A stretch of 64,000 nt of DNA from assembly GCA_959347315.1 (NCBI GenBank), contig OY365810.1:22287815-22351814 (forward strand), in the 5' to 3' direction. Position numbers and translations under genes: made by a program. This DNA is from Bimastos eiseni. Its lineage: Eukaryota > Annelida > Clitellata > Crassiclitellata > Lumbricidae. Positions 2,787 through 61,165 of the stretch are shown here, one piece after another (positions within the stretch are counted from its first letter, which is position 1; every line of letters begins with the position of its first letter). The notes under the pieces were generated by a model that had not been told where the DNA came from, did no database searches, and was given only the letters and a program-made list of their open reading frames with translations.

Positions 2787-3586
2787 CAATATTTTCGTCT
2801 TGTCGGCTGCAGTTGGACTGGGAACCTATCGCTGTGAAAAACAATGATCTGCAACGGTCGGTCTAATGTATCATGGTAGCTTTAATTCATACGTCAAATG
2901 CAGCCATTAACATCGGTGGCAATAGAACCGACGTGGTTAGCAGGACTTCATTAATTATTTGGTCGGTGTTGCTCTGTTAGGAGCGTCTCCAAGTAAACAG
3001 TCATAATTTAACCGACAGTATCTCAGTCATTGTCTGAAACATATCCTCGACGCTCATATATAGCAACCAAAATTGATTTTCCTAATGCATACAGTTAGCT
3101 TGGCCTTTAAAACATCTGCTCGTCAATGTTGTCTTATTTTTCTGCGATGTGCGCCTTATTTTAAGGTCAGACGATTGAGCAATTTAATGGACTGAATCGT
3201 TGCCTTTTATTGAACCCAAATCTCTGATGTGTTTGGTAATTAGCTGATATGAAAAATGAGTTAATTCATCACAAAATAAACTGAACATTAAAGGTGTTGG
3301 CCTCATTTGACTGCGTTGTAAACTCGCTAAGTGCCGTCTTGAAAGCAACTTAGCATCGTGACGTTAAACTTGAGCGTGACCTTGATGGGGCCATGGGGGC
3401 ATCAAATGTGTCGCAGTGGAATGTATTTGATTGAAAGCTTTGAAAGGTGAAGACAACATGTTGAACTTCATCGAATTACTTCTATTCTTTTTTTCCACGA
3501 GGAAAATTCCCTCAGGATTCAAAAAGTAGGAGGCCATTGTTCTGGAAAGGCCAGTCTTCGCAGATGTTTTATTAGTTGAAAAAGGG
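2787..3586. other. No recognisable gene
   Basis: Neither strand gives a frame with family resemblance. The right part runs into the LINE tail array that starts near 3587. Confidence 0.45.
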
Positions 3587-3881
3587 CTACAAAAAGCGAC
3601 TGCGTTGAAGCGTTGGACAACCATTGACCAGCTCTGATAGAGGAAGGCGGTCTCTCTCTTGTCGTCTGATACCTGGGCAAGCCGGTGGTCACGAAGGTTG
3701 ATCAGTGCTAGGCCATATGCCGGTTGACAGGACCCAGAGTCTCGAAAGCCAATGGCACAAAGCAGTAAGATGAAAAAATAGCAGTGTATTTTGATGTTTT
3801 TCTGTCTGCTGCAATCTCGGCCGCAACACCCGCATCCTCAGCTGATTTGGTGCGGTATGACTCTGCTAGGGTGTCCATGAT
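3587..3881 (-). mobile_element. RLE-type LINE 3' tail, copy A (decayed)
   Basis: Read on the minus strand this encodes the C-terminal block of a non-LTR retrotransposon polyprotein: a start like MDTLAESYRTKSAEDAG, then FVPLAFETLGPVN, a stop and frame breaks, then an end block with VQRFNAVAF. The same landmarks recur in copies B, C and D. It is 5'-truncated and carries inactivating breaks. It is the most decayed of the four and lies at the 3' end of the array. Confidence 0.6.
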
Positions 3882-3888
3882 TATTGTT

Positions 3889-3936
3889 ATTATTATAATA
3901 ATAATAATAATAATAATTATTATTATTATTATTATA
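3889..3936. repeat. (TAA/ATT)n microsatellite between LINE copies A and B
   Basis: An imperfect run of ATT/AAT triplets that changes strand sense midway. It marks the 3' end of LINE copy B and the truncated 5' end of copy A. Confidence 0.75.
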
Positions 3937-4655
3937 TTATGCTGTTATCACCCATGTGGGTGAGCTAAGTGAGTGGTGGCAATGTCCCGAAGAGGCAGGC
4001 GGCGTTCCCACGCTGAAGAACAACCGAGATACGTTGGAACAGAAATGACGTCTCCATTGGATCGTGGGTTGCAGCACTCGTTCGACTACCCAACTCTGAG
4101 ATGAACTGCAGTCCTTCACTGCTCCAAGCGCCGGCAGATTCCAAGGAGAGGGCTACGAAGTCGTGAGTGTTGGTTATGGTGGAATACTTGGCCCTCTTCG
4201 TCTTAGCTGCGCGTTCGGCTGCTTCGCCAGCTCTGATAGATGTGTCGGCAAGATGTGACTTGGCGTAGGTGTCGGGCACTGTCACATCCCATGCCAGACA
4301 TCGACCACGTGTCCAAGGAATGAACGTGACGCCGTCCGGTCGCTTTCCATCTTCTCTTACCAAGCCGAGAGGTTCCTTTTGCGCTGGAATCTTCGCTCTG
4401 CCAAGAGCTCTCCAGACTACGTCGTTCAACCTGCTATGTCGTTGATGTTTTCCGATGCCTCTTCTACAAATTAGTCCATAGAGCCCTTTTGCATCGACGC
4501 TCTCTTGACATTGGTGACACAATGTGGCTCGCAGAGCGTCGTTCCTAGCCTCAACCCGGCTGCCATTCGTACATCCTCGTTTGAGAGGCGCAGGCCTAGG
4601 GCAGTCACAGGGGCCGCTAGCAGCCAGTCTCCAGAATGAGGTGCTCGTGAAACCA

Positions 4656-4656
<1 letters not shown>
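3937..4656 (-). mobile_element. RLE-type LINE C-terminal fragment, copy B (longest)
   Basis: The minus-strand frame (stop near 3965) holds the best preserved copy. In order it shows a Cys/His cluster (CHQC followed by Cys, then HQRHSRLND), the block RPDGVTFIPWTRGRCLAWDV, a basic AERAAKTKRAKY segment, FVALSLES, and the end block VLQRGNAACLFG. The RPD with a downstream WDV and a preceding Cys/His cluster resembles the PD-(D/E)XK restriction-like endonuclease of R2/R4/Hero-type LINEs. That is a family inference from motif layout. The reverse transcriptase is absent, so the copy is 5'-truncated. The long Asn run at the start of the frame is only the translated microsatellite. Confidence 0.65.
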
Positions 4657-4701
<45 letters not shown>

Positions 4702-4723
4702 CGTTATTATTATTATTATATTT
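4657..4723. repeat. (ATT)n microsatellite between LINE copies B and C
   Basis: About twenty ATT triplets with one ATC interruption. It abuts the truncated 5' end of copy B and the 3' end of copy C, the same position as the other ATT tracts in the array. Confidence 0.85.
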
Positions 4724-4744
4724 CATCCTGGTCTTTAATGTGAA

Positions 4745-5140
4745 TTAATGGTGACGTCGTACGGAGTAGCCCTGCTCGTTGTACTCATGAACAGCGAAAG
4801 TTCCATTGAAAGCAACTGCGTTATAGCGTTGAATAGTCATCGAGATGCGCTGGTAGAAGAAAGTCGCCTCCCTCTGCTCCCCAGTGACGGCGCTCAGTTT
4901 GTGTCGCAGTTCTGCAAGGAAGCTTTGGCCTTCGGAATTGATGGGGCCAAAGGTTTCGCATGCCACCGGTGTGAAAACGTACGAGGAGGTTAGCACGGCG
5001 TATTTCTGAGTTTTGAGGTTCGCCGCACTCTCGGCCGCTGCACCCGCTCTTTTTGATGTTTCTCGAAGATACGACGTTGCCATTGTATCTGACACTATCG
5101 CGGTGTTTGATACGGTGTTTGAAGGGTTAGTCCATCTGAA
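4745..5140 (-). mobile_element. RLE-type LINE 3' tail, copy C
   Basis: The minus-strand frame begins MSDTMATSYLRETSKRAG, continues through FTPVACETFGPINSEG and ends near IQRYNAVAFNGTF. These are the landmarks of copies A, B and D. The frame is intact over about 116 codons, so this looks younger than copy A. Everything 5' of the endonuclease-like block is missing. Confidence 0.65.
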
Positions 5141-5145
5141 CTGTC

Positions 5146-5197
<52 letters not shown>
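5146..5197. repeat. (ATT)n microsatellite between LINE copies C and D
   Basis: An almost pure run of about seventeen ATT triplets, placed exactly between the 5' end of copy C and the 3' end of copy D. Confidence 0.85.
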
Positions 5198-6360
5198 GAC
5201 TATAGCTGCACTGAAGGAAACTGCATTGAAGCGCTGGATGCAGACTGACAATCGTTGGAACAAATAGCTTGTCTCTCTAGGGTCTCTGGTGACATGTGTC
5301 AGGAGGCGACCCAAGTCTTTGATGAAGTCCATTCCGTCGTTGTTGACTGGGCCCATGATCACCAAAGGCCAATGGAACGAAGAGATAGCTAACAGCGAGC
5401 TGGCTGTACCTGATGGTCTTCCTGGCAGTGTTGGGCACAAGACCAAAACCTCGAGCCCAAGACCGAGACAAAGGCCGAGAGGTCCAAGACCAAGACCAAG
5501 ACCGGGTGGTCCCAAACCAAGACTAACACCGATACTCTTTTTTATAAACAATTCAATTTATTAAGACGCTAAAACGGAATAACACGCTTAAAACATTAAT
5601 TTTATTGCTGAAGAATACTAATCTTAATAATGGTCTAGAAAACATTTTTACCGCCTAGTCTGAACTTTTGCGGGTTCAGTCCTAGGCTACGGCCTGAGAA
5701 TATCGCACTATAAATTACTTACAGTATACGATAGGTTATAAATAAGACATCTGAACAAGTATATGAACGTTCCATTTGAATGGTGTAGGACTGTAGGCCT
5801 ACTTGTACTCGGAATTGTAGGTTAACAGTGACTACACGTGGCCGACCACACCATTATTAGATTGTTCCAAAACCTTGAAATTTGCGAAAGCAAATTTTGA
5901 AATTACTGGTTCCGTTACATATGTCTTTTCCCCCATAGTAACTTGTATATATAGATGGTCAGCACGTCATAAATCGATGACACGCGCGCCTGCTCTAAAC
6001 ATCCGGTGTTTCTAATATTCGAAAAAAACCGACAAATATCAAAGAAATTGATCTGATACGGCAAATGACCAAGAACGCCAACCTAAGACAGAGACAAATC
6101 CAAAGACCGTTCCTTTAAGACCAAGACCGACGCAGTCGAGACCAAGACCAAGACCACGACCGATGGTCCGAGACCAAGACCAAGACCGCAGTTTTCCGGT
6201 CTCGAGACCGTCTCGAGATCACATCCCTGCTTCCTGGTGGTTGACACCTCCGCTGCAGCCCCCACCGAAGATGATGTTTCTTGGAGATATGATAGAGCCA
6301 CGGTGTCAATCACTGTCGCATCCCATACCAGGTTCCGTCCTCTTCGCCACGGAATCAGCG
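5198..6360 (-). mobile_element. RLE-type LINE 3' tail, copy D, split by a hAT MITE
   Basis: The C-terminal half (5198-5425, minus) has landmarks MGPVNNDGMDFIKDLG and IQRFNAVSF. The N-terminal half (6230-6360, minus) has IPWRRGRNLVWDAT and VIDTVALSYLQETSSS. An 804-bp hAT MITE lies between them, flanked by the duplicated 8-mer CTTCCTGG. The two halves are continuous in frame once the MITE and one target copy are ignored, so the LINE was already there when the MITE inserted. Confidence 0.65.
5426..6229. mobile_element. 804-bp hAT MITE with GGTCTTGGTCTC arrays (copy 1)
   Basis: The ends are CAGTGTTGGGCAC and, reverse complemented, CAGGGATGTG. Perfect 8-bp duplications CTTCCTGG flank it (5418-5425 and 6230-6237), which is diagnostic of hAT-type insertion. 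Both subterminal zones are arrays of a GACCAAGACC / CTCGAGACC motif, and the middle is A/T-rich. There is no transposase frame. A second copy of exactly the same length lies inverted at 57661-58464, and a truncated end lies at 53675. Open frames here simply translate the arrays. Confidence 0.85.
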
Positions 6361-14050: not shown

Positions 14051-14816
14051 TTAGCTTTTCCTTTTACTACCCATAGAACTACTTTTTGTAGGCACTTTTG
14101 AATTTTCTTTCGACGTATCTGAATTTTTTGTTGCTGCCGTCTGTTCACTGGTCACAGGGGGGTCATCGCTGGTCACGTCATTGACTCGTAGAACCTCGAT
14201 CAGCGCATTGTCCACATTTTCTAAAGCAATATTTGCAAACACACTCATGTCTGGCAGAATAACCCTTAATAGTTTTGCAACATTACTACGCAAGCTGTTC
14301 AAATGCTGAACTGCATTTCCTGGATCCTCTGGAAGCAGGGTCTGAGTTCTCACGCTCCGTTTGCTCTTGGTAGGCTCAGGTGGGACATCCACGCTTCGTG
14401 TGCTCTTGGTTGGCTCAGGTGGGACATCCATTAAACTTACATTTGTTTCAGAGTCCTTACTAGTGCTACTTTTGCTCTTTACTTTCTTTGAAGCTGACAC
14501 TTTGTCTCGTGACCCTTTTGTGCTCGGGGTATTCTCTGCTGGAGCTTCTCTATTTTCGCAGTTGATTTCTGGTGCTGAAGACAATTCAATTGGCAATTCA
14601 CCATCAGAGTGTTCAGGTTCTGAGTCAATGACAATGACGTCCCCAGTGTCCCTGGACTTCCTTGGTAATTTTACTATCAAATTTGGCTTTACATCGCGTG
14701 TGTCATCATCGTCTTCAACAACTGCTGCTTCTGGAAGTGAGACATTATTTGCAGCACCATTCTGGTTACAACGCTTCTTTGAGGTTTGTGGCGTATCTTC
14801 GTATGCTTTGCGTTTC
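14051..14816 (-). CDS. MORC3-like protein, terminal exon
   Basis: The minus-strand exon begins after an acceptor (TTACAG) at 14817 and stays open for about 254 codons to a stop at 14051. The incoming phase (one base, completing AA|G) matches the donor of the exon at 17069. It begins with a basic nuclear-localisation stretch (KRKAYEDTPQTSKKR). Then comes DVIVIDSE, a textbook SUMO-interacting motif. Next is a Ser/Lys-rich region with two tandem copies of DVPPEPTKS(T/K)RSV. A helical segment follows (LNSLRSNVAKLLRVILPD...NALIEVLRVN), resembling the conserved C-terminal helix of MORC3, and the tail ends SKRKS. MORC3 acts in nuclear bodies and gene silencing. The weak acceptor pyrimidine tract is the main uncertainty. 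Confidence 0.75.
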
Positions 14817-14977
14817 CTGTAACATCAGAATCCAGAGACGAGGTGAACTGTAGGGCATGTATGCAAACAGACTCTGCCATGCTGTCTTATAAGGGACTAT
14901 CTGTTTAATATGTACACAGAAATCAGAATAAATTTGCCGGCTCCATCTCCCTGTAAATACATTAACTTTCTTTACAC

Positions 14978-28153: not shown

Positions 28154-28500
28154 ATGAGCCTAAGGTCTTCCACAGGGGCTCACCTGTCTCAGAATGTGGA
28201 ACGACCAGCTGTTGGTAGCAGACGAACTGCTGATCTTGACCTTAAAATGGTGGATTATGTACAATCACCCCGACGTGGCTCCTATAACGTTCCAGTGGAA
28301 AAGGAACCGGTTACAAGTGATCCAGAGCAGTCTTCCCCTCAGCCAGACACTGACGCCTGCGGATATCTCGTCGATAAGAAGTTCATCTTCGGCTATCCAT
28401 CCCATCGGAAAGGTCACCTGAAGATGAATGTACAGGGAAAGGTCTACAACTTCTTAGAGCGGCCTACTGGCTGGAAGTGCTTCGTATACCACTTCACAGT
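28154..28500 (+). CDS. KCNQ1-type Kv7 channel, coding exon 1 (cytosolic N-terminus to start of S1)
   Basis: Exon of 115 codons plus two bases, opened by ATG after an in-frame stop and closed by the donor at 28501 (ACAGT|GTGAGT). The end phase equals that of human KCNQ1 exon 1. Residues 93-107, [15 protein letters not shown], followed by KCFVYHF, are nearly identical to KCNQ1 and differ from KCNQ2-5. Residues 40-43 are RRGS, a protein kinase A consensus like the one around Ser27 of human KCNQ1. The channel carries voltage-gated K+ current in the plasma membrane, in vertebrates with KCNE subunits. The N-terminus is somewhat shorter than in human. The junction is embedded in a 50-bp tandem triplication. 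Confidence 0.93.
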
Positions 28501-28628
28501 GTGAGTAGCGCAACCAATAGTCTTTCTTTCTGGCTGTACCATTTCACAGTGTGAGTAGCATAACCAATAGTCTCTCTTTGTGGCTCTACCACTTTACAGT
28601 GTGAGTAGCGTAACCAATAGTCTTTTTT
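28487..28628 (+). repeat. 50-bp tandem triplication covering the exon-1 splice donor
   Basis: Units begin at 28487, 28537 and 28587 (the third partial, about 42 bp). Each contains CACAGTGTGAGTAGC or a one-base variant (TACAG in unit 3), followed by (A/G)TAACCAATAGTCT-like sequence. Unit 1 holds the real end of exon 1. Units 2 and 3 carry equally good GTGAGT donors at 28551 and 28601. Use of either would add 50 or 100 bp and meet an in-frame TGA directly after the YHFTV codons. Confidence 0.95.
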
Positions 28629-44800: not shown

Positions 44801-45276
44801 AATGATTGTCTCCAAAACACATAGGACCTGTGAGGGTTCTGGAAGGCAGGAAGGTATGGTTAAGGATGAGTGCTATAAAAAGAAGACTAAATGAGGTGAT
44901 TAAGTTATTGACAGGGTGATAGTATATGAACAGAAGAGAAAGACAGAAGGGAGTAGTCTCCTATCAGGAGAGAGACCAATGAGATAGTGAAGAGTTGAGT
45001 TGAAGTGAGATGAAAAATGGAGTTATCCCTACAGGTGTTTTTTTCATTGATGAAGTCTGTTGAACTGAAGAACTTGATAACCTGGACAAGATGTGTCACA
45101 TGACCATCTGGACTTAATTATTATTCATGATTATGATAGGAGTAAGAGATGAGGTGATGAGTGTATGATTCTACTGCAATTGCCTGGCTCTATCATAATG
45201 TGTGGTTTTATCGCTGCAACAAATAATCCGTTCCACCTCAAGGACGAGTGCTTTGTTCTAATTCTTCAATCAATGT

Positions 45277-45955
45277 ATGTTTCTATTGTCATGATGAGTG
45301 TATGTTTCTATTGTTTTGTTATGATGAGTATATGCTTCTATTTTCATGATGAGTGTAGGTTTCTATTGTCATGATGAGTGTATGTTTCTATCGTCATGAT
45401 GAGTGTATGGCTCTATTGTCATTATGAGTGTATATTTCTATTGTCATGATGAGTGTATGCTTCTATTGTCATGATGAGTGTATGTTTCTATTGTGATGAT
45501 GAGTGTATGTTTCTATTGTCATGATGAGTGTATATTTCTATTGTGATGATGAGTGTATGCTTCTATTGTCATGATGAGTGTATGTTTCTATTGTTATGAT
45601 GAGTGTATGTTTCTATTGTGATGATGAGTGTATGTTTCTGTTGTCATGATGAGTGTATGTTTCTATTGTCACTATGAGTGTATGCTTCTATTGTTATGAT
45701 GAGTGTATGTTTCTATTGTCATGATGAGTGTATGTTTCTATTGTTTTGTTATGATGAGTATATGCTTCTATTTTCATGATGAGTGTATGTTTCTGTTGTC
45801 ATGATGAGTGTATGCTTCTATTGTCATGATGAGTGTATGGCTCTATTGTCATTATGAGTGTATGCTTCTATTGTCATGATGAGTGTATGCTTCTGTTGCA
45901 ATGATGAGTGTATGCTTCTATTGCAATGATGAGTGTATGCTTCTTATACCATGAT
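45277..45955. repeat. 26-bp minisatellite (GATGAGTGTATG core), about 25 copies
   Basis: Units of 26 bp, typically GTCATGATGAGTGTATGTTT followed by CTATTG, repeated over about 680 bp with single-base variants (GTC/GTG/GTT and TTT/CTT). A longer variant containing TTGTTTTGTTATGATGAG occurs near 45310 and again near 45740, so part of the array was duplicated as a block. Confidence 0.95.
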
Positions 45956-57451: not shown

Positions 57452-57542
57452 GTTTATGATGGTGCTAGTCTGTCTCATATTCAGCGTTTTGTCGACCATC
57501 GAACAGTATGCAACATTTGCCAACAAAACCTTGTTCTGGATG
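57452..57542 (+). CDS. KCNQ1-type channel, exon 2 (S1 and S1-S2 loop)
   Basis: A 91-bp exon between TTCTCTTCTAG and a GTGAGT donor. Human KCNQ1 exon 2 is also 91 bp and has the same phases. With the two bases from exon 1 it starts Val and reads [20 protein letters not shown], then [11 protein letters not shown]1 is nearly identical to human, including the Glu of IEQYA at the outer end of S1. The S1-S2 loop has an NKT glycosylation sequon not present at the equivalent place in human. The open frame extends upstream of the exon, but that part is intronic. Confidence 0.95.
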
Positions 57543-59136: not shown

Positions 59137-59640
59137 TCAATGGGGATTAAAGCGATGATGTAGTAATCTTATAATAAAGTCACACCGGGTGAAATCATCA
59201 GCCTGGGGAACAAACCTGTTGTGAGCACGTGGATGCAACTGGTGCTCCACACTCCTAATAGAAGGAAGAAGATTTCTTAGAATCTGGTCAGGATTAGAGA
59301 GGATGGAGTTGAAAAGGGAGACATCAGCTCGTTCGCATAGTTCATCAAAGGATGTTTGTTCAGAGGTGAGCATCCCGTGTCGCATCAGCTTCTGTACAAC
59401 AGCATTGAGGCGAGCGCGGTGGTTCGCATTAGTGAAACCATACCATGCTGGAGAAGCATACAGGAGACGGGCTAAAGTAGTAGTCCGCAGAACATCATAG
59501 AGGGCCACGCCATGAAGCCCATGGGTTCTAAGGACATGCAAGGCACACAAATACTGATTTGCCCTAGTACAGATCCAGTCAATATGTGCATCAGGGCAAA
59601 ACCCTCAGTAATCAAGAAAAAGTAGTTGTAGTGCTGTGTC
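59137..59640 (-). mobile_element. LINE reverse transcriptase C-terminus (thumb region)
   Basis: The minus-strand frame is open for about 160 codons and reads CTRANQYLCALHVLRTHGL, then LARLLYASPAWYGFTNANHR, LNAVVQKLMRHG, SFDELCERADVSLFNSIL and FTRCDFIIRLLH. This is the standard order after the RT palm in jockey/RTE-like LINEs of invertebrates. The palm domain is missing. With no internal stops over this length it is one of the younger LINE fragments here. It lies in KCNQ1 intron 2, antisense to the gene. Confidence 0.75.
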
Positions 59641-61038: not shown

Positions 61039-61165
61039 GAGATCGTTTTGGTCGTGTTCTTTGGAGTGGAGTACATAGTTCGGCTGTGGTCAGCTGGATG
61101 TCGGAGCAAGTACATGTCATTACAGGGAAGACTTCGGTTTGCCAGAAAACCCATTTCCATTATTG
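61039..61165 (+). CDS. KCNQ1-type channel, exon 3 (S2 and S2-S3 linker)
   Basis: A 127-bp exon between GGCTTTCAG and a GTAAGC donor. Human KCNQ1 exon 3 is also 127 bp with the same phases. It reads [20 protein letters not shown], then [20 protein letters not shown] and II plus one base. The acidic residues equivalent to human E160 and E170 and the charge-transfer Phe (F167) of S2 are conserved, as are the SAGC motif and the RLRFARKP linker that contacts PIP2 and calmodulin in the human channel. Exon 4 (S3) was not found to the right, so the gene continues beyond the window. Confidence 0.96.

What the first reader, a model, noticed from the sequence alone, without database searches (positions are those of the whole stretch)
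28487..28628. KCNQ1 exon-1 splice donor triplicated in a 50-bp tandem repeat
Three consecutive 50-bp units each carry the CACAGTGTGAGTAGC-type exon/intron junction. The first is the true donor by comparison with human KCNQ1. The other two offer equivalent GTGAGT donors 50 and 100 bp downstream, and either would give a transcript with an immediate in-frame TGA. This could be a built-in unproductive splicing switch, or simply a recent slippage event with competing donors.
Basis: partly seen in the sequence, partly recalled or inferred. Interest (0 to 1): 0.75.

Follow-up and report, generated by a model that had tools for sequence, protein, structure and literature searches.

The report
Triplicated splice-donor minisatellite in KCNQ1
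A short stretch at the end of the first coding exon of an animal potassium-channel gene is present three times in a row, leaving two spare look-alike splice sites that are most likely bystanders rather than a regulatory switch.

Summary
Three 50-bp units (28487-28625) straddle the 3' end of a KCNQ1-type exon, each with an identical donor, AGT|GTGAGT, at 28501, 28551 and 28601. The first is the homologous junction: exon 1 ends in GT, exon 2 (57452) opens with G, and 12 of 13 listed relatives that carry the exon-1 end motif continue V|F. The array is beyond chance (TRF 229; best of 50 simulated windows 66), but the window holds 27 arrays of period 20 or more.

The regulatory reading is weak. Any phase-2 exon before GTRAGT reads TRA, a stop, at once; 100 of 119 listed exon-1 relatives end there. 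Donor columns are not specially conserved (P 0.21). The one relative with intron read-through that I tested shows no second unit. Copies differ at 3-5 of 42 columns, against assembly stutter and against very recent slippage.

Best explanation: a lineage-variable minisatellite across a splice junction, the upstream donor probably dominant because equal donors beside long introns favour it (PMC9225289). Low-level nonsense transcripts are possible; predicted pairing favours donor 3. No RNA evidence was available.

The parts
28154..28500 (+). KCNQ1-type first coding exon from the likely ATG (MSLRSS...) to the split valine codon (GT|G); 347 nt, phase 2
   Evidence: KCNQ1 chains of the PDB match residues 85-115 at E 8.5e-11, KCNQ5 only 0.39; relatives P0001-P0003 86-93% identical over the whole query
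28487..28536 (+). Unit 1: 14 nt of exon end plus 36 nt of intron; contains the homologous donor at 28501
28501..28506 (+). Donor 1, AGT|GTGAGT, the homologous exon 1 / intron 1 junction
   Evidence: phase joins exon 2 (GT + G = Val, then Phe); 12 of 13 motif-bearing proteins of P0121-P0235 read V|F
28503..28505 (+). In-frame stop (tail of the codon pair GTG TGA, TGA at 28502-28504 by codon count from 28154) met as soon as donor 1 is not used; made by the donor consensus itself
28537..28586 (+). Unit 2, with spare donor
   Evidence: 44 of 50 columns equal to unit 1
28551..28556 (+). Spare donor 2, same 9-mer; use adds 50 nt and a stop; the stop lies 46 nt before the new junction
28587..28625 (+). 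Unit 3, diverged at its 3' end, with spare donor
   Evidence: TRF end 28625; 42 of 50 columns equal to unit 1
28601..28606 (+). Spare donor 3, same 9-mer; use adds 100 nt and the same stop; the stop lies 96 nt before the new junction
57452..57542 (+). KCNQ1 exon 2 (91 nt), acceptor TTCTCTTCTAG|G, donor ATG|GTGAGT
   Evidence: tblastn with P0107 and P0110; boundaries
61039..61165 (+). KCNQ1 exon 3 (127 nt)
   Evidence: tblastn with P0107; boundaries

Best explanation
A 50-bp segment spanning the exon 1 / intron 1 junction of a KCNQ1 gene was tandemly duplicated to three units in this lineage, as one minisatellite in a minisatellite-rich region. The two extra units sit in intron 1 and carry donors identical in sequence to the real one. 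The upstream donor is most likely the main one used, because competing donors of equal strength beside a long intron favour the upstream site. Any use of donor 2 or 3 yields a transcript with an immediate stop and so only reduces output. The extra donors are tolerated bystanders, possibly a small source of splicing noise or of length polymorphism. Shown: the array, its match to the exon end, the phase, the stop, and no second unit within 96 nt in one relative. Inferred: the direction of change (gain here rather than loss there), donor usage, and lack of function.
For: Array real and beyond chance, in a window with 27 arrays of period 20 or more covering 4.76% of bases. Unit 1 is the homologous junction by protein and phase. 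The relative P0001 (93% identical over the exon) reads on into its intron: its first 7 codons resemble unit 1, but the remaining 25 codons match no unit copy (scores 14, 15 and 17; random 50-nt pieces 15.5, sd 3.4; the window's own read-through, as positive control, 54, 65 and 46). Its whole tail fits unit 3 plus the true flank better than most random continuations (39.3; 11 of 1000 reach it); the flank alone scores 29.4, which 6 of 400 random pieces reach. Donor 9-mer columns are no better conserved than chance (P 0.21; longest invariant run P 0.49). Minigenes with two identical donors under exon definition used the upstream one exclusively, and near-equal human donors next to long introns prefer upstream (PMC9225289, abstract and Results part 1 read).
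Against: No RNA data. The three donors are identical from -5 to +9, so strength gives no reason to prefer the first. Predicted pairing leaves donor 3 most open (mean unpaired 0.41, against 0.21-0.24 for donor 1 and 0.16-0.17 for donor 2), which points the other way. The proximity rule was derived on human internal exons; this may be a first exon; and with strength ignored the same paper finds a downstream preference of about 60%, in all four intron classes. Only one relative was tested, and it cannot tell gain in the window's lineage from loss in the other; the flank match is modest, and unit 2 plus its continuation scores the same 39.3.
Confidence: 0.8

Rival explanations
1. Unproductive-splicing switch: the spare donors are kept by selection so that a splicing factor can divert KCNQ1 transcripts to donors 2 or 3 and into nonsense-mediated decay, setting channel level.
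For: Donors 2 and 3 are intact and identical to donor 1, and both give a stop in exon 1 with further exon junctions downstream. Predicted pairing leaves donor 3 most accessible.
Against: The stop is automatic for phase 2 plus GTRAGT; 100 of 119 listed exon-1 relatives end at that valine. The donor columns are not specially conserved. The one relative tested has no second unit within 96 nt. For donor 2 the stop lies only 46 nt before the new junction, although later junctions exist.
Confidence: 0.05
2. Noisy splicing with real competition: the three donors are all used at appreciable levels and the repeat lowers productive KCNQ1 mRNA, without being a regulated switch.
For: Identical donor sequence in all three units, so no strength difference decides the choice; donor 3 is predicted to be the most open.
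Against: Proximity evidence favours the upstream donor. A strong loss of output would be expected to be removed by selection, yet the copies differ at 3-5 of 42 columns and so are not fresh (inference).
Confidence: 0.1
3. Assembly artefact: one unit in the real genome, repeated by the assembler.
For: Short tandem repeats are a known source of assembly error (recalled), and no reads could be examined.
Against: The units differ from each other at 4, 3 and 5 of 42 columns, which a stuttered single unit would not give.
Confidence: 0.04
4. Intron gain or mini-intron: each unit carries a donor and, in the next unit, a pyrimidine tract with CAG, so 49-nt introns could be removed between units.
For: GTGAGT to TTTCACAG of the next unit forms a 49-nt donor-to-acceptor span.
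Against: The junction is CAG|T|GTGAGT, not AG|GT, so removal leaves an extra T and does not restore the frame; the unit has no AGGT. 49 nt is very short for an animal intron (recalled).
Confidence: 0.01

Closest known systems
[quoted passage not shown] potato RdRp case of that paper; abstract and introduction read)
   Same: A tandem duplication crosses an exon/intron boundary and multiplies splice signals.
   Different: Here the donor side, not the acceptor side, is copied; no AGGT is present, and no new intron that restores the frame can form by exact removal of a unit.
Intronic VNTR that alters splicing (ABCA7, PMC5954066, abstract read)
   Same: A tandem repeat in an intron, with a possible effect on splicing that depends on copy number.
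   Different: In ABCA7 the repeat is intronic and its length correlates with exon 19 skipping; here the unit contains the junction itself, and no effect has been measured.
Competing identical 5' splice sites (minigenes of PMC9225289, abstract and Results part 1 read)
   Same: Same-strength donors compete for one acceptor under conditions of exon definition.
   Different: Those were engineered minigenes and human internal exons; this is a natural array of three, perhaps on a first exon.
Alternative splicing coupled to nonsense-mediated decay (poison donors and exons; recalled)
   Same: Use of the downstream donors would give an early stop followed by exon junctions.
   Different: No conservation, regulation or transcript evidence; the stop is a by-product of phase.

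Membership tests
KCNQ1 (Kv7.1) gene | KCNQ1-type pre-S1 sequence followed by S1-S3 exons in order and in phase | tested here: met
   KCNQ1 chains at E 8.5e-11 against 0.39 for KCNQ5; exons 2 and 3 found at 57452 and 61039 in phase
Minisatellite / tandem duplication | Head-to-tail copies of a 10-100 bp unit beyond chance | tested here: met
   score 229 against a maximum of 66 in 50 simulated windows
Minisatellite / VNTR | Copy number varies between individuals or lineages | tested here: inconclusive
   one relative lacks a second unit within 96 nt; no population data
Unproductive-splicing (AS-NMD) switch | Alternative site gives a premature stop | tested here: met
   but (100 of 119) shows that the stop is generic to this junction
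Unproductive-splicing (AS-NMD) switch | Alternative site conserved beyond its surroundings | tested here: not met
   P 0.21 for the donor 9-mer; no second unit in the one relative tested. Low power: 42 columns, one relative
Unproductive-splicing (AS-NMD) switch | Alternative junction used and raised when decay is blocked | not testable with these tools
   No RNA-seq; no near-identical protein crossing the junction among the 120 listed of 375 found
Intron gain by tandem duplication | Duplicated segment supplies GT and AG that remove exactly one unit (AGGT) | tested here: not met
   the unit has AGTGT, no AGGT; the 49-nt span leaves an extra base

The most novel reading that the evidence does not exclude
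A copy-number-variable minisatellite whose unit is itself a splice junction acts as a graded attenuator: each added unit adds an equal competing donor and lowers productive KCNQ1 mRNA by a step, so allele length sets channel dose.
Probability: 0.05. Interest if true: 0.5.

Novelty: new member of a known kind. Interest (0 to 1): 0.22.

Why it matters
It is a natural case of three sequence-identical donors 50 bp apart on one exon, beside a 29-kb intron. If copy number varies between individuals it would allow a clean test of which donor the spliceosome picks when strength is held equal. As a regulatory element it is unsupported. The comparison also shows that an immediate stop behind a spare donor is not by itself evidence for a switch when the exon ends in phase 2.

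Tried and rejected
Recursive splicing or ratchet point: rejected because acceptor-like CAG and GTGAGT are separated by one T. Intron gain: rejected for lack of AGGT. Selection on spare donors: tested by placement of variable columns, not supported. Own-species transcript across the junction: sought with joined exons 1-3; none among the 120 listed of 375 found. Read-through tails of relatives other than P0001 (16 further proteins that neither stop at the valine nor run into exon 2, list) were not tested for extra units; P0002 and P0003 end at the valine and say nothing about unit number. Pfam on the exon-1 peptide gave no family. Whole-genome look for other copies of the unit: the genome search gave no answer in ten tries. 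Literature: seven searches, of which I saw listings with titles and starts of abstracts, not every hit (for example 20 of 60, 20 of 34, 10 of 108); none listed was about a multiplied donor in KCNQ1; the library holds open-licence PMC papers only. Passages of PMC11718197 (found by terms) held nothing on duplicated donors.

Full report
What is there. The window (64,000 bases, 39.0% G+C) holds, on the + strand, three exons of a KCNQ1-type potassium-channel gene: exon 1 from a likely ATG at 28154 to 28500, exon 2 at 57452-57542 and exon 3 at 61039-61165. The exon 1 peptide matches KCNQ1 chains of the PDB at E 8.5e-11 and KCNQ5 only at 0.39. Exon 1 ends in GT and exon 2 begins with G, so the split valine codon is restored and the reading continues [13 protein letters not shown]. 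Intron 1 is 28,951 bases by these boundaries.

The repeat. TRF reports 28487-28625, period 50, 2.8 copies, score 229. Each unit begins with the last 14 exon bases (or their copy) and goes on with 36 intron bases. The string ACAGTGTGAGTAGC is found at 28496, 28546 and 28596 only. Copy 3 has TACAG for CACAG and drifts at its 3' end. In 50 simulated windows that keep dinucleotide content, the best array of period 20 or more scored 66. The array is therefore real, but it has company: 27 distinct arrays of period 20 or more cover 4.76% of this window.

Is donor 1 the true one? Of the 115 further proteins listed by the search with joined exons 1-3 (P0121-P0235; 120 listed of 375 found), 13 carry the exon-1 end motif as I wrote it and 12 of them continue V|F at the same place; the thirteenth (P0144) lacks the start of exon 2. 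Together with the phase this fixes 28501 as the homologous donor. The comparison is with relatives in the database, not with transcripts of this species: no near-identical protein was among those listed.

The stop codon. With donors 2 or 3 the protein stops after 116 residues at the same TGA. This needs no design: an exon that ends in phase 2 before GTRAGT reads xxG and then TRA, always a stop. Of the 120 exon-1 relatives listed (122 found), 119 carry the motif; 100 end exactly at that valine, and 19 go on, two of those (P0107, P0110) into exon 2. Ending there is what an immediate stop would give; the DNA was not seen, and some may end there for other reasons.

Selection on the spare donors. 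In unit columns 1-42 six columns vary. That the donor 9-mer holds none of them has probability 0.21 under random placement, and an invariant run as long as the longest one seen (14) has probability 0.49. The other long invariant stretch, AACCAATAGTCT, is not part of the donor. The copies differ at 4 (1-2), 3 (1-3) and 5 (2-3) of 42 columns, Jukes-Cantor 0.10, 0.08 and 0.13. This speaks against a simple assembly stutter and makes the duplication older than a fresh slippage. With 42 columns the test has little power.

A relative without the second unit. P0001, an unnamed protein 93% identical over the exon, runs on into its own intron: FTV-WVVKPIV-LWLWLEVVLWIFSLFEYIWMNTKIL. WVVKPIV resembles the start of the intron in unit 1, with tryptophan (TGG) where the window has TGA, so that its donor at the same place would read GTGGGT. 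The remaining 25 codons match no unit copy: scores 14, 15 and 17 against 15.5 (sd 3.4) for random 50-nt pieces, while the window's own read-through scores 54, 65 and 46. The whole tail scores 39.3 against unit 3 plus the true flank; 11 of 1000 random continuations reach that. The part beyond the first 7 codons scores 29.4 against the flank alone, which 6 of 400 random pieces reach. The flank match is therefore suggestive, not strong. Unit 2 plus its continuation gives the same 39.3; going from unit 1 straight on through unit 2 gives 29.4. One relative cannot decide between gain here and loss there, and the other read-through tails were not tested.

How it probably works. All three donors have the same sequence from -5 to +9, so they should bind U1 equally (inference). 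In human data, near-equal donors beside long introns prefer the upstream site, and minigenes with two identical donors under exon definition used the upstream one exclusively (PMC9225289, abstract and Results part 1 read). The same paper reports a downstream preference of about 60% when strength is ignored, in all four intron classes, and it studied internal exons. Predicted pairing speaks the other way: donor 3 is the most open (0.41, against 0.21-0.24 for donor 1 and 0.16-0.17 for donor 2). My judgement is that donor 1 dominates and the others are bystanders, with some leak possible.

Other readings. A new mini-intron or a recursive splice point would need AG|GT; the sequence has CAG|T|GTGAGT. 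The known duplication route to introns (PMC4974935, abstract and introduction read) therefore does not fit. Intronic repeats that alter splicing are known (ABCA7, PMC5954066, abstract read); whether this one does is open. The boldest reading left standing is a graded attenuator in which unit number sets the share of productive mRNA; I give it 0.05.

Limits. The whole genome could not be searched, and no RNA data were at hand.

Noticed in passing
3364-5557, - strand: Four neighbouring open frames share a segment (consensus ETSFLYQRISMVIQRFNAVAF); the other three are 27-34% identical to the first. They look like diverged copies of one element tail, perhaps a retroelement (recalled resemblance), with no Pfam match.
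   Followed up: partly
59137-59604, - strand: A 155-aa open frame that looks to me like the C-terminal part of a LINE reverse transcriptase (recalled resemblance); no Pfam match.
   Followed up: partly
45274-45944: A 25-bp minisatellite of 26 copies inside KCNQ1 intron 1.
   Followed up: no
14051-14824, - strand: A 257-aa open frame with a 13-aa repeat coded by a 39-bp tandem repeat (14351-14430); no Pfam match.
   Followed up: partly
28499-28506: Overlapping donors GTGTGAGT: a second GT two bases upstream of the real one, in all three units.
   Followed up: no
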